DNA of 64,000 nucleotides from Micromonospora pattaloongensis (GTDB lineage: Bacteria > Actinomycetota > Actinomycetes > Mycobacteriales > Micromonosporaceae): the NCBI RefSeq assembly GCF_900107255.1, contig NZ_FNPH01000001.1, positions 248,001 to 312,000 of the forward strand, written 5' to 3'. Positions 8,109 through 14,231 of this stretch are shown piece after piece; position 1 is the stretch's first letter, and every line of letters starts with the position of its first letter. The translations under genes and the position numbers were made by a program. The notes beneath the pieces were generated by a model. It searched no databases, had not been told where the DNA came from, and worked only from the letters and a program-made list of their open reading frames with translations.

Positions 8109-8158
8109 TCCGCCTCCGGTCCGGCGACACGGGCCGGACCAGCACGGACTCGTAGACG

Positions 8159-8200
8159 ACAGCGGGAAGGGGCGGCCGCATGGCCGCCCCTTCCCGCTGT
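8159..8200 (+). terminator. Hairpin terminator after the DUF5679 gene
   Basis: A 19-bp perfect GC-rich stem (8159-8177 with 8182-8200) closes a 4-base loop, followed by GTCTGT. The T run is weak but the stem is long and well placed. Confidence 0.75.
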
Positions 8201-8261
8201 GTCTGTCGCCCTCTCGACACGCGCCGTCATGTCCATGCGGCGACAGCGATCGACGGGAGGG

Positions 8262-11169: not shown

Positions 11170-11535
11170 TCAGGCCGCCAGTCGGACCGCGTCGCGCGAC
11201 TCGGCGAGCCCATTGGCCGCCATGCGCGCCTCGACCTCGACCCGCAGGGCCGCGTCCCGGGCGACGTCCTCCTTGCGCGGGCGGCCCCGCGGCCGCTTGC
11301 GCGGAACGACCGCGCCACGCTCGAAGATCTCGCCGCCCCAGACGCCCCACGGCTCGGCCCGCTCCACCGCGCCGGTCAGGCACTCGACGCGCAGCGGGCA
11401 GTCGCCGCAGAGCGCCTTGGCCAGCTCCAGCTCGGTCGGGGAGTCGGAGAACCACAGGTCGGGGTCGAACTTCCGACACGGCAGGTTCGCCTCCAGCTCG
11501 ACGCTCAGGTCGAGCGGGGCCAACGCCAGACTCAT
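11170..11535 (-). CDS. whiB7: WhiB7-type iron-sulfur transcription factor
   Basis: The protein has 121 residues. It carries the four cluster cysteines of WhiB proteins (Cys20, Cys43, Cys46, Cys52), the G[VI]WGGE turn at 64-69 and an AT-hook (RGRPRK, 83-88), the combination diagnostic of WhiB7. WhiB7 proteins bind an [4Fe-4S] cluster and the principal sigma factor and activate intrinsic antibiotic resistance genes from AT-rich promoter elements. ATG 11535 is chosen by family length. Upstream lie a 94-codon leader ORF and a terminator, so expression is expected to be attenuated until translation in the leader is disturbed. The gene neighbourhood (ABC1 kinase, uvrD2) is that of mycobacterial whiB7. 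Confidence 0.95.
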   Translation of the reverse strand: MSLALAPLDLSVELEANLPCRKFDPDLWFSDSPTELELAKALCGDCPLRVECLTGAVERAEPWGVWGGEIFERGAVVPRKRPRGRPRKEDVARDAALRVEVEARMAANGLAESRDAVRLAA

Positions 11536-11597: not shown

Positions 11598-11641
11598 AAA
11601 AAACTGAGGCCGCGGATCCCGGTAGCGGGTTCCGCGGCCTC
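11598..11641 (-). terminator. Intrinsic terminator in the whiB7 leader (attenuator)
   Basis: On the minus strand an 11-bp perfect stem (11631-11641 with 11606-11616), extended by an internal CCC/GGG pair, is followed by a run of six T (11598-11603). It stands 22 bases after the stop of the leader ORF and 63 bases before the whiB7 start, so it would stop transcripts before whiB7 unless an alternative fold forms. Confidence 0.88.
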
Positions 11642-11683
11642 GAGGTGAGCCGGTGGTCTTTGTCAGACCGGCCTTCCTCGAGG
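11638..11683 (-). promoter_or_regulatory. Competing antiterminator hairpin at the whiB7 leader-ORF stop
   Basis: The self-complementary octamer CCTCGAGG occurs twice, at 11676-11683 (inside the last codons of the leader ORF) and 11638-11645 (overlapping the outer arm of the terminator). The copies can pair with each other and enclose a second imperfect stem (GGTCT 11665-11669 with AGACC 11655-11659, plus flanking GGC/GCC) whose loop holds the stop codon. Pairing of the two copies would remove the outer bases of the terminator stem. A ribosome at the leader stop would mask the first copy. Confidence 0.65.
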
Positions 11684-11947
11684 TGGAACACCGCGGGCAC
11701 CATCCATCAGCCGCTTCTTGACGGTCGTGACGATGGCCTCGCTGCCCAGGAACCCACTGGTCCCGATGAACTCGCTGATCTCGTGACGCTGCTCGACGCG
11801 CGGCAGGGCCCGGACCAGCTCGGCCTGGACCTGGACCTGGTGCGCCTGCGTGAGCGGACGGGCGTCGACGGCGTAGCCGGCCGACACCGACACCGGAGCC
11901 CAGACAGCAGGCAGCGCCGACGGTCGGTTCATCGTGTACGTCTCCAC
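11663..11947 (-). CDS. Leader ORF (uORF) upstream of whiB7, 94 residues
   Basis: A GTG start at 11947 follows AGGAGG at eight bases, one of the best ribosome sites in the window. The protein is 94 residues with no recognised domain; it includes HQVQVQAELVRALP and ends KKRLMDGARGVPPRGRPV. Third positions are strongly GC, so it is probably translated. It lies wholly inside the roughly 500-base leader between the putative whiB7 promoter and the whiB7 start, and its last codons overlap the antiterminator. Upstream ORFs of varied sequence are known in whiB7/wblC leaders of mycobacteria and streptomycetes, where translation inhibition relieves attenuation; the same role is inferred here. It could also be an independent small gene. 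Confidence 0.75.
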   Translation of the reverse strand: METYTMNRPSALPAVWAPVSVSAGYAVDARPLTQAHQVQVQAELVRALPRVEQRHEISEFIGTSGFLGSEAIVTTVKKRLMDGARGVPPRGRPV

Positions 11948-12036
11948 CGTCAACACCTCCTGTCTGAACTCGTCACTGATCACTGCAGATCCCCCACCAG
12001 CAGCGATAACTCCACTACTCGTGCGGTGCGAACTGA

Positions 12037-12073
12037 GGCTAAGCCCGACCACGGGGCGGGGGCAAACGAATTT
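12037..12073 (-). promoter_or_regulatory. Putative whiB7 promoter with AT-rich element
   Basis: On the minus strand AAATTCG precedes a -35-like TTTGCC (12061-12066), and after 18 bases comes TTAGCC (12037-12042). WhiB7-activated promoters have an AT-rich stretch just upstream of the -35 box, which is present here in otherwise GC-rich DNA, consistent with autoactivation. It overlaps the stop of uvrD2, so uvrD2 and whiB7 are close to one transcription unit. Confidence 0.45.
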
Positions 12074-14231
12074 ACGGTGATTCCCCAGAAGTTTTTTCGG
12101 GCGCCACGTCATCGACGTCCGCACCGTCCACCAGGGCCAGCACCGCGTCGCCGTAGAGCCCCAGCTTGCGCGGGCCGATGCCCGCGATCGCGATCAGCTC
12201 CTCCGAGCGGCCCGGCCTGCGCTCGGCGAGCGCGACCAGCGTCGCGTCGGTGAACACCACGTACGCAGGCACTTTCTGCGCGCCGGCGACCCGCAGCCGC
12301 CACTCCCGCAGCCGCTCGAGCAGCTCGTCGTCCAAGTCGGACGGACACGTCGGACACCGCCCCAGCTTGCGGTCGGCGCCGGCGAGCAGCGTCGCGCCGC
12401 ACACCCGGCAGGAGACGACCTGACGGCGACGGTCGGGTTTGCGACTGTTTCCCGCGCCGGCCCGCTCGGGGCCGCCGCCGGAGCGGTCGAGCTGCGGCAG
12501 GAAGCGGCTGGGACGGCGGGCGCGGCCACCGGGCGAACGCGCCGCGCCGTACGACAGCCACAGCCACTCCCGAGCCCGCGTCACTCCGACGTAGAGCAGC
12601 CGGCGCTCCTCCTCCAGCTGCTCCGCCGTCTTCGCGTAGGTGGTCGGCAACGTGCCGTCGGAGAGGCCGACCAGGAACACCGCGTCCCACTCGAGCCCCT
12701 TCGCCGAGTGCAGCGACGCGAGCGTCACCCCTTCGACCGTCGGCGCGTGCTGCTGCGCGGCCCGCCGCTGCAACTCGTCGCAGAAGTTGCTCAGCGAGAC
12801 CGGCCGCTCCGAGACCGCGGCCTCGCCCAACGGCAACAGCACCGGCGACGCCGCGTACTCCTCGGCGAGCTGGACCAGCGCGGCCAGCGCCTCCCAGCGC
12901 TCCCGCGCCGCGCCGCCCGGCGGGGGCTGGTCCGGTGCCCAGCCGACCGCCGCGAGTCCGTCGACGACCGCGGGAACCAGCGGGGTCTCGCCCGGCGTCG
13001 CGCGGACGGCCGAGCGCAGCGCGACCATCGCCTGGCGCACCTCGGCGCGCTCGAAGAACCGCTCGGCCCCCTGCACCACGTACGGGACCTCGGCCTCGGT
13101 GAGCGCCTTCTCGTACGCCTCCGACTGCGCGTTGGTCCGGAACAGCACGGCGATCTCCCGTGCGGGCGTACCGCCGGCGATCAGTTGCCGGCAGCGCGCG
13201 GCCACGGCCGCGGCCTCGGCGGGCTCGTCGGCGAAGATCCGCAGGTCGGGCTCGGGGCCGGGCGCGCGCTGCCCGACCAGCTCCAGTCGCAGCCGCGCCT
13301 CCGCGCCGCGCGCCTGCTTGATCACCGCGTTGGCGAGCCCGACCACCTGCGGCGTGGACCGGTAGTCGCGGACGAGCCGCACCACCACCGCGTCGCGGTG
13401 GTGCCGGGGAAAGTCGATGAGGTACGACGAGGTGGCGCCGGTGAACGAGTAGATCGTCTGGCTGGCGTCCCCGACGACCGTCAGGTCGTCCCGCCCGCCG
13501 AGCCAGGCGTCGAGCAGGCGCTGCTGCAGCGGGTTGACGTCCTGATACTCGTCGACCACGAAGTGCCGGTACTGGGCGCGCACCTGCTCGGCGACGTCGT
13601 TGTGCTCCTCGATTCCCCAGACCGCGGCCCGGAGCATGTCCTCGAAGTCGATCACGCCGCTGGCGCGCTTGAGCGTCTCGTACGCGGCGAAGACCTCCGC
13701 GACCCTGGCCGGCTCGTGCGGCGTCTCGCGCAGCGCCTTCGCGGCCGCCACCACGTACTCCGCCGGCTCGACCAGCGACGACTTCGCCCACTCGATCTCG
13801 CCGGCCAGGTCCCGCGCGGCCGCCCGGTCCGTGCGCATGCCGATCTTGGCCGCCGCCAGCGTCACGAGCCGCACCTTGCTGTCCAGCAGCTCCGGCATCT
13901 CCCGACCGTGCAGCAGCCGGGGCGCGAAGTAGCGGACCTGGCGCAGCGCGGCGGCGTGGAACGTGCGCGCCTGCACCCCACCGACGCCGAGCGCGGTGAG
14001 CCGGGCGCGCATCTCGGCCGCGGCCCGCGCGGTGAAGGTGACCGCGAGCACGTGTCGCGGCACCACCTCGCCGGTGAGCGACCGGTACGCGATCCGGTGC
14101 GTGACGGCGCGGGTCTTGCCGGTGCCGGCGCCGGCGAGGATGCAGACCGGCCCGGCCGGCGCCGTCACCGCCGTGCGCTGCTCCGGATCCAGCCCGGCGA
14201 GCACCCGTTCCGCTGCTGAGTCAACCGCCAC
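12072..14231 (-). CDS. uvrD2: UvrD2 superfamily 1 DNA helicase
   Basis: The protein has 719 residues. The Walker A loop GAGTGKT and the helicase motif VDEYQDVNPLQ mark a UvrD/PcrA-type 3'-5' helicase. Two features typical of actinobacterial UvrD2 follow: a zinc-binding tetracysteine module CRVC-x14-CPTC and a C-terminal HRDC domain (LREWRLRVAGAQKVPAYVVF to IAGIGPRKLG). In mycobacteria UvrD2 is an essential helicase and the cysteine module is needed for unwinding. The gene is divergent from mrx1 and lies directly upstream of the whiB7 leader, both conserved neighbours. Confidence 0.95.
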   Translation of the reverse strand: MAVDSAAERVLAGLDPEQRTAVTAPAGPVCILAGAGTGKTRAVTHRIAYRSLTGEVVPRHVLAVTFTARAAAEMRARLTALGVGGVQARTFHAAALRQVRYFAPRLLHGREMPELLDSKVRLVTLAAAKIGMRTDRAAARDLAGEIEWAKSSLVEPAEYVVAAAKALRETPHEPARVAEVFAAYETLKRASGVIDFEDMLRAAVWGIEEHNDVAEQVRAQYRHFVVDEYQDVNPLQQRLLDAWLGGRDDLTVVGDASQTIYSFTGATSSYLIDFPRHHRDAVVVRLVRDYRSTPQVVGLANAVIKQARGAEARLRLELVGQRAPGPEPDLRIFADEPAEAAAVAARCRQLIAGGTPAREIAVLFRTNAQSEAYEKALTEAEVPYVVQGAERFFERAEVRQAMVALRSAVRATPGETPLVPAVVDGLAAVGWAPDQPPPGGAARERWEALAALVQLAEEYAASPVLLPLGEAAVSERPVSLSNFCDELQRRAAQQHAPTVEGVTLASLHSAKGLEWDAVFLVGLSDGTLPTTYAKTAEQLEEERRLLYVGVTRAREWLWLSYGAARSPGGRARRPSRFLPQLDRSGGGPERAGAGNSRKPDRRRQVVSCRVCGATLLAGADRKLGRCPTCPSDLDDELLERLREWRLRVAGAQKVPAYVVFTDATLVALAERRPGRSEELIAIAGIGPRKLGLYGDAVLALVDGADVDDVAPEKTSGESP

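What the first reader, a model, noticed from the sequence alone, without database searches (positions are those of the whole stretch)
11598..11947. Complete ribosome-dependent attenuator ahead of whiB7
The leader has a strongly initiated 94-codon ORF (AGGAGG site, GTG 11947), a T-tailed terminator (11598-11641), and two copies of the self-complementary CCTCGAGG. One copy is in the last codons of the ORF and one is in the outer arm of the terminator. Pairing of the copies forms a hairpin with the leader stop codon in its loop and breaks the terminator base. A ribosome reaching the stop would cover the first copy and favour termination; stalling upstream would free it and allow whiB7 transcription. 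whiB7/wblC attenuation is known in mycobacteria and streptomycetes; the exact elements and this ORF sequence appear lineage-specific.
Basis: partly seen in the sequence, partly recalled or inferred. Interest (0 to 1): 0.8.

Follow-up and report, generated by a model that had tools for sequence, protein, structure and literature searches.

The report
Ribosome-sensing switch ahead of whiB7
Just before the antibiotic-response gene whiB7 lies a built-in on/off switch that appears to let the gene be read only when ribosomes are in trouble; switches of this kind are already known in related bacteria, and this one is a clear, well-conserved example with some new anatomical detail.

Summary
It is a whiB7/wblC uORF attenuator, a kind in print for mycobacteria and Streptomyces, here in a Micromonosporaceae genome. 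Corrections: the architecture is not lineage-specific; with the terminator complete, the octamers do not displace it at equilibrium, so antitermination must be kinetic and probably uses a further pairing, in which ORF codons (CCGCGG/GTTCC) mimic the terminator's 3' arm. Not met in the passages I read: a rare-codon tail of the uORF in 31 of 32 families, which might hold the ribosome over the switch. Function was not testable. Interest is modest: a new member of a known kind.

The parts
12069..12074 (-). AT-rich WhiB7-type box TAAATT, 3 nt upstream of the -35; overlaps the uvrD2 stop codon
   Evidence: Sequence; conserved in the alignment of 71 family leaders; motif GAAAWY 3 nt upstream of -35 is from PMC7157823 (passage); here AAAWY matches, the first base differs
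12060..12065 (-). putative -35 TTGCCC
   Evidence: Sequence; TTGC marked as conserved in 95% or more of the 71 leaders aligned
12036..12041 (-). putative -10 TAGCCT, 18-nt spacer; start of transcription expected near 12029 (inferred)
   Evidence: Sequence; conserved
11956..11961 (-). Shine-Dalgarno AGGAGG of the leader ORF
   Evidence: Sequence; a strong SD before an ATG/GTG giving 70-125 codons in 71 of 79 rows
11663..11947 (-). leader ORF (uORF), 94 codons, ends ...RGVPPRGRPV-stop
   Evidence: (59 of 150 family genomes matched); no Pfam or NCBIfam family
11691..11696 (-). CCGCGG in ORF codons: mimic of the terminator 3' arm, can pair with the terminator 5' arm (extension of the antiterminator)
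   Evidence: Fold before the 3' arm is made; between-family covariation of this region with the terminator arm; no covariation within the family
11685..11689 (-). GTTCC, alternative extension pairing with GGAAC of the terminator 5' arm
   Evidence: Constrained fold
11676..11683 (-). octamer copy 1 CCTCGAGG inside the last codons of the ORF
   Evidence: synonymous-site constraint: CCT and CGA in 78 of 79 rows, the 79th a misassigned ORF
11649..11672 (-). inner antiterminator stem GCCG-GTCT / AGAC-CGGC around the ORF stop codon
11638..11645 (-). octamer copy 2 CCTCGAGG, overlapping the terminator 5' arm by GAGG
11606..11641 (-). intrinsic terminator hairpin GAGGCCGCGGA..TCCGCGGCCTC
   Evidence: a very similar hairpin in most class leaders
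11598..11603 (-). U6 tract of the terminator
   Evidence: Sequence
11170..11535 (-). whiB7 (regulated gene), 121 aa with RGRPRK hook
   Evidence: Pfam Whib; M. tuberculosis WhiB7 in PDB; no NCBIfam match

Best explanation
A translation-coupled transcription attenuator of whiB7, of the whiB7/wblC uORF type. Shown by sequence and comparison: the parts, their order, the octamer pairing kept by compensatory change, the rare synonymous codons forced on the ORF tail. Inferred: transcription starts near 12029; while RNA polymerase moves towards the terminator a ribosome translates the 94-codon ORF. If it reaches the tail and stop codon in time it sits in the loop of the would-be antiterminator and masks the inner stem and part or all of copy 1, so the terminator forms and transcription ends near 11598 (about 430 nt RNA). 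If ribosomes are absent, slow or stalled upstream of the tail, copy 1 and the codons before it are free when the 5' arm of the terminator emerges; copy 1 pairs with copy 2 and the CCGCGG/GTTCC codons pair with the rest of the 5' arm, which kinetically traps the arm and lets polymerase through into whiB7. WhiB7 then activates its own promoter. Because the ORF body is hardly conserved as a peptide, the switch reads ribosome progress in general, not one amino acid or one arrest peptide.
For: Coordinates and folds. WhiB7 identity. 143 of 200 family genomes with one element each. 107 family leaders examined, 105 resolved, 102 distinct: 100 keep all eight octamer pairs, 87 of them Watson-Crick throughout, among these 12 changed on both sides (7 CCTCGAAG/CTTCGAGG, 4 CCTCGAGA/TCTCGAGG, 1 CCTCGAAA/TTTCGAGG); 2 have a mismatch; the same search in control stretches 100 and 180 nt upstream reaches a score of 7.5 in 0 of 104 each. 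Own-versus-foreign duplexes, one genome per family, 32 families: octamer -2.61 kcal, extension -0.96 kcal, five control stretches -0.07 to +0.20. CCT and CGA in 78 of 79 rows against 3.1% and 3.8% in reference ORFs. In L100 the peptide changes (PPRRKPD) while pairing is kept. ORF body pN/pS 0.80. Copy 1 lies 9-12 nt before the stop in 38 of 67 class leaders with a helix. Literature: antiterminator from overlapping uORF and terminator sequences (PMC10727445, passage).
Against: At equilibrium the complete terminator wins even with copy 1 free (foot pairs 0.73 to 1.0), and the 501-nt fold also contains the terminator; the model needs kinetics that I did not simulate. Within the 77-leader alignment 6 of 8 octamer pairs never vary, so that alignment says little. 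The extension helix shows no change on both sides there and one of its pairs is broken in 27 of 77; in the per-family draws its largest p was 0.06. The tree-aware sign test had too few independent pairs. 29 of 67 class leaders with any helix lack the 9-12 nt spacing; of nine f15 leaders only L115 and L119 have a 6-bp helix near the place. Copy 1 in the family table was chosen as best complement, which favours pairing. No expression data.
Confidence: 0.88

Rival explanations
1. Arrest-peptide attenuator: the conserved tail VPPRGRPV itself stalls the ribosome (two prolines, rare codons) in response to a drug or to low EF-P, and the nucleotide conservation is a by-product of peptide conservation.
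For: The tail G-V-P-P-R-G-R-P-V is strongly conserved in the family; the first Pro codon varies CCA/CCG while Pro stays.
Against: The codons CCT and CGA are fixed at rare synonymous choices; L100 changes the peptide but keeps pairing; other families have different tails but many keep pairing. A stall on the tail would cover copy 1 and favour termination, the wrong way round for an inducer (inference).
Confidence: 0.07
2. Rho- or translation-coupling control without a defined antiterminator: stalling simply changes ribosome spacing, and the octamers are part of the terminator or a protein site.
For: The octamers are palindromes (a protein site is conceivable); the terminator dominates the equilibrium fold.
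Against: Variants such as CCTCGAAG/CTTCGAGG and CCCTGGAG/CTTCAGGG are neither palindromes nor direct repeats but remain complementary.
Confidence: 0.04
3. Constitutive terminator protecting against readthrough from uvrD2, with the ORF not translated.
For: uvrD2 ends directly upstream at 12072; the ORF body is weakly conserved (pN/pS 0.80).
Against: A conserved promoter-like stretch and SD lie between; the antiterminator pairing has no role in a plain terminator, yet is kept.
Confidence: 0.02

Closest known systems
whiB7/wblC uORF-mediated transcription attenuation (Lee, Lee and Roe 2022, doi 10.1111/mmi.14834, and Burian and Thompson 2018: neither read; known to me from citing papers)
   Same: Long leader, uORF with SD, Rho-independent terminator, antiterminator using sequence shared by uORF and terminator, autoregulated promoter with an AT-rich box (PMC10727445, PMC11550727, PMC4128351, PMC7157823: passages read)
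   Different: Octamer CCTCGAGG and uORF tail PPRGRPV are typical of the Micromonosporaceae and some other families; the mycobacteria-like leaders (f8) lean, by eye, on a terminator-arm mimic TCCGTGG/CCACGGA rather than on the octamer
trp/ilv-type amino-acid attenuators (for mycobacterial ilvB1 see PMC13236596, passages)
   Same: Ribosome position chooses between antiterminator and terminator
   Different: No run of one regulatory amino acid seen; the ORF body is weakly conserved
Leader-peptide attenuators of ABCF resistance genes (are5sc, tiaA in PMC12421871, passages)
   Same: Ribosome-targeting drugs induce readthrough via a uORF
   Different: There very short ORFs (MLV, MVGDDDISG) with stalling at the start codon; here a 94-codon ORF whose length lets any stalled ribosome count (inference)

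Membership tests
whiB7/wblC uORF attenuator | Lies in the leader of a whiB7 orthologue | tested here: met
whiB7/wblC uORF attenuator | uORF with ribosome-binding site | tested here: met
   AGGAGG 8 nt before GTG; strong SD in 71 of 79 rows. Translation itself not tested
whiB7/wblC uORF attenuator | Rho-independent terminator between uORF and whiB7 | tested here: met
   the simple scan missed it
whiB7/wblC uORF attenuator | Antiterminator built from overlapping uORF and terminator sequence | tested here: met
   Pairing and compensatory changes; kinetic competition not simulated, equilibrium fold favours the terminator
whiB7/wblC uORF attenuator | Homology to the leaders studied at the bench (Streptomyces, mycobacteria) | tested here: inconclusive
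   Similar terminator and covarying arms in unnamed f33 and f8 genomes; f8 WhiB7 is close to M. tuberculosis WhiB7; f33 as Streptomyces is my guess from genome size
whiB7/wblC uORF attenuator | Autoregulated promoter with AT-rich box 3 nt before -35 | tested here: met
   TAAATT-CGT-TTGCCC-18-TAGCCT (motif); sequence only, first motif base differs
whiB7/wblC uORF attenuator | Premature termination, relieved by ribosome inhibitors | not testable with these tools
   Needs RNA data
amino-acid (trp-type) attenuator | Run of codons for the regulating amino acid before the switch | tested here: not met
   peptides read by eye; body weakly conserved
arrest-peptide attenuator | Peptide sequence, rather than RNA, conserved at the stall site | tested here: inconclusive
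   Tail conserved, but synonymous sites fixed and peptide changed where pairing is kept

The most novel reading that the evidence does not exclude
The uORF tail is a built-in brake. Across actinobacterial families the last eight or so codons are rare ones (in Micromonosporaceae typically GTT-CCA-CCT-CGA-GGN-AGR, two prolines in a row), including AGA/AGG whose first bases take no part in the pairing I see, so that an unimpeded ribosome slows exactly over copy 1 until polymerase has cleared the terminator. The switch would then compare two speeds, ribosome against polymerase, with the tail setting the delay.
Probability: 0.25. Interest if true: 0.55.

Novelty: new member of a known kind. Interest (0 to 1): 0.35.

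Why it matters
whiB7 governs intrinsic resistance to ribosome-targeting antibiotics in actinobacteria, and the Micromonosporaceae make many such antibiotics (recalled). The comparison gives base-pair-level antiterminator predictions, with natural compensatory variants, that can be tested directly in harmless laboratory strains, and shows that the same logic runs through many families of the class. It does not reveal a new kind of regulation.

Tried and rejected
Rfam search of 8 kb around the site at E up to 1: four hits, all below gathering score and all at 8146-8254, away from the leader. Covariation within one 77-leader alignment: too conserved, and RNAalifold found the terminator plus fragments; replaced by the family-wide table and the own-versus-foreign duplex test. 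A plain equilibrium fold as proof of the antiterminator: rejected, it favours the terminator. Tree-aware sign test: too few independent pairs (parsimony counts 10 changes in copy 1, 14 in copy 2 on a quick whiB7 tree). Naming the f33 genomes through plasmid records: no close record among 8 matched, but it led to named leaders of Nonomuraea gerenzanensis and Nocardia farcinica, which, read by eye, show the terminator and an ORF mimic of its arm but no clean octamer helix. Lee et al. 2022, Poulton et al. 2024, Burian et al. 2012 and D'Halluin et al. 2023: not held. Listings for 'Micromonospora whiB7' (3 papers, none opened), 'whiB7 antiterminator' (3, two opened in passages), 'whiB7 rare codon' (1, of which I read only the whiB7 passages) and 'Micromonosporaceae transcription attenuation' (0) showed nothing on this leader; subscription papers and supplements were not searched. 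Rows dropped or misread: L107 and L109 from the family counts; 2 identical rows (L043, L091) from alignment A1; L198 and L200 unresolved and L192, L194, L197 identical to L042, L079, L101; L099 was given a wrong ORF and is the odd row among 79 (its true tail has CCT-CGA); one search used 71 leaders (62 outside the family alignment, 9 family representatives), leaving out L119, L123, L133, L134, L161, L169, L170 as near-duplicates, L107 and L109, and L116, L120, L130, which its pattern missed; one search used 73 of 81, five without a terminator found and three without a stop.

Full report
1. What is there. On the minus strand, uvrD2 (14231-12072, Pfam UvrD and HRDC) is followed by a leader of roughly 490 nt (start inferred) and whiB7 (11535-11170). 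The protein is a WhiB7 orthologue: its best PDB match is M. tuberculosis WhiB7, 115.7 bits against 35 for WhiB1, with the RGRPRK hook. A promoter-like TAAATT-CGT-TTGCCC-18 nt-TAGCCT (12074-12036) is conserved in the 71 family leaders aligned and resembles the WblC box GAAAWY 3 nt upstream of -35 (PMC7157823, passage). The octamer by itself is as frequent as chance in the window (3 found, 3.37 expected).

2. Conservation. The best WhiB7 relatives in named genomes are Micromonosporaceae. In 200 genomes of the window's family, 143 hold CCTCGAGG-N22-46-CCTCGAGGCCGCGG, one place each, and none the reversed control. Of the 57 genomes without the exact pattern I looked at 28 (25, all with whiB7, and three). 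I then took 107 family leaders together: 78, the window, 3, 25. 105 could be resolved, 102 are distinct. 75 have the identical pair; the others are CCTCGAAG/CTTCGAGG (7), CCTCGAGG/CCTTGAGG (6), CCTCGAGG/CTTCGAGG (6), CCTCGAGA/TCTCGAGG (4) and four single cases. 100 of 102 keep eight pairs, 13 of these with G-U; 12 are changed on both sides and still Watson-Crick; two (L207, L210) have a mismatch. Copy 1 was chosen as the best complement in a 53-position stretch, which favours pairing; the same choice in two control stretches never reached 7.5 (0 of 104 each).

3. Coding constraint. In 79 rows of family tails, CCT is used in 78 and CGA in 78, against 3.1% of Pro and 3.8% of Arg codons in 78 reference ORFs (49,822 codons); the 79th row, L099, is a misassigned ORF whose true tail also has CCT-CGA. 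Since other Pro or Arg codons would serve the peptide, the RNA is under selection. In L100 the peptide becomes PPRRKPD while all eight pairs stay. The ORF body is weakly constrained as protein: substitutions by codon position 641/733/751, pN/pS 0.80 over 85 close pairs, tail left out (crude counting, pairs not independent). So the leader probably reads ribosome progress rather than a peptide.

4. Beyond the family. From 142 of 150 order genomes and 130 of 148 class genomes with a WhiB7 match I fetched 80 leaders. 75 of 80 have a terminator-like hairpin, in most of them strikingly alike: GGCCGCGGAACCCG..CGGGATCCGCGGCC, or GGCCACGGA..TCCGTGGCC in the mycobacteria-like family. With stop codon and terminator as anchors, 73 of 81 leaders (window included) from 32 families were tested: duplexes of ORF tail with the genome's own copy 2 region are 2.61 kcal/mol better than with those of other families, and of the codons further upstream with the own terminator 5' arm 0.96 kcal/mol better (300 permutations for each of 200 draws: median p 0.0000 for both, largest 0.000 and 0.060); five control stretches show nothing (-0.07 to +0.20). 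Variants include CCTGGAG/CTCCAGG and CCCTGGAG/CTTCAGGG. Copy 1 lies 9-12 nt before the stop in 38 of 67 leaders with a helix. Not all fit: of nine leaders of family f15 only L115 and L119 have a 6-bp helix near the place, and several others have none.

5. Mechanism. Equilibrium folding of the finished leader end gives the terminator whatever the ribosome does (foot pairs 0.73 to 1.0 with copy 1 free, where part of the octamer pairing can coexist; 1.0 with the ribosome at the stop). Before the 3' arm exists, the stretch folds into an antiterminator of -42 to -43 kcal/mol that uses copy 1-copy 2, the inner stem, and either GTTCC-GGAAC or CCGCGG-CCGCGG, i.e. most of the 5' arm. Kinetic competition of this sort is the usual logic of attenuators (general knowledge). 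A ribosome with the stop in its A site reaches about 15 nt upstream of that codon, by mycobacterial data (PMC10287673, passage), which would mask the inner stem and five bases of copy 1. Steps shown: parts, pairing conserved by compensation. Steps inferred: transcription start, termination, kinetic trapping, induction.

6. Known or new. [quoted passage not shown] also passages of PMC11550727; PMC9618640; PMC4128351; PMC13393426). The primary paper was not available to me. The window's element is therefore a new member of a known kind. What I did not meet in the passages read, or in the listings: the terminator-arm mimicry across families and the rare-codon tail; either may be in papers I could not open. 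The tail is rarer than the body in 31 of 32 families (mean log relative frequency -1.06 against -0.50); AGA/AGG make 23 of 81 tail Arg codons and 4 of 179 body ones. The two other reading frames of the same tails are less rare (-0.76, -0.79) than the true frame, and there the tails are not rarer than the bodies (-0.97, -1.01). Reference codon use there came from only 6,237 whiB7 codons, and RNA pairing explains part of the effect, so the brake reading stays a hypothesis.

Noticed in passing
window 11168-10932, minus strand: A small ORF directly after whiB7 with the motif M(H/Q)LLHEALSRARMR; a loose motif search finds such an ORF after whiB7 in 49 of the 76 loci with enough downstream sequence, with no Pfam or NCBIfam family.
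   Followed up: partly
window 8153-8205: Long near-perfect inverted repeat (GCGGGAAGGGGCGGCC ATG CGGCCGCCCCTTCCCGC) downstream of a DUF5679 zinc-ribbon gene; the weak Rfam hits of the region fall on it.
   Followed up: no
window 11703-11170, minus strand: The whiB7 reading frame is open through the terminator up to an ATG at 11703, so a readthrough transcript could in principle encode an N-terminally extended WhiB7.
   Followed up: no
L111-L113 and L208 (family genus code g11): A genus of the same family has the compensated octamer pair CCTCGAGA/TCTCGAGG; L111-L113 also have a different terminator arm (GGCCGCGACTCCC or GGCCGCGAATCCC).
   Followed up: partly
class-wide leaders: The intrinsic terminator hairpin is conserved in sequence, not only in structure, in most leaders across the class, often with an A/A mismatch; unusual for a terminator and only partly explained by its double use in the antiterminator.
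   Followed up: partly
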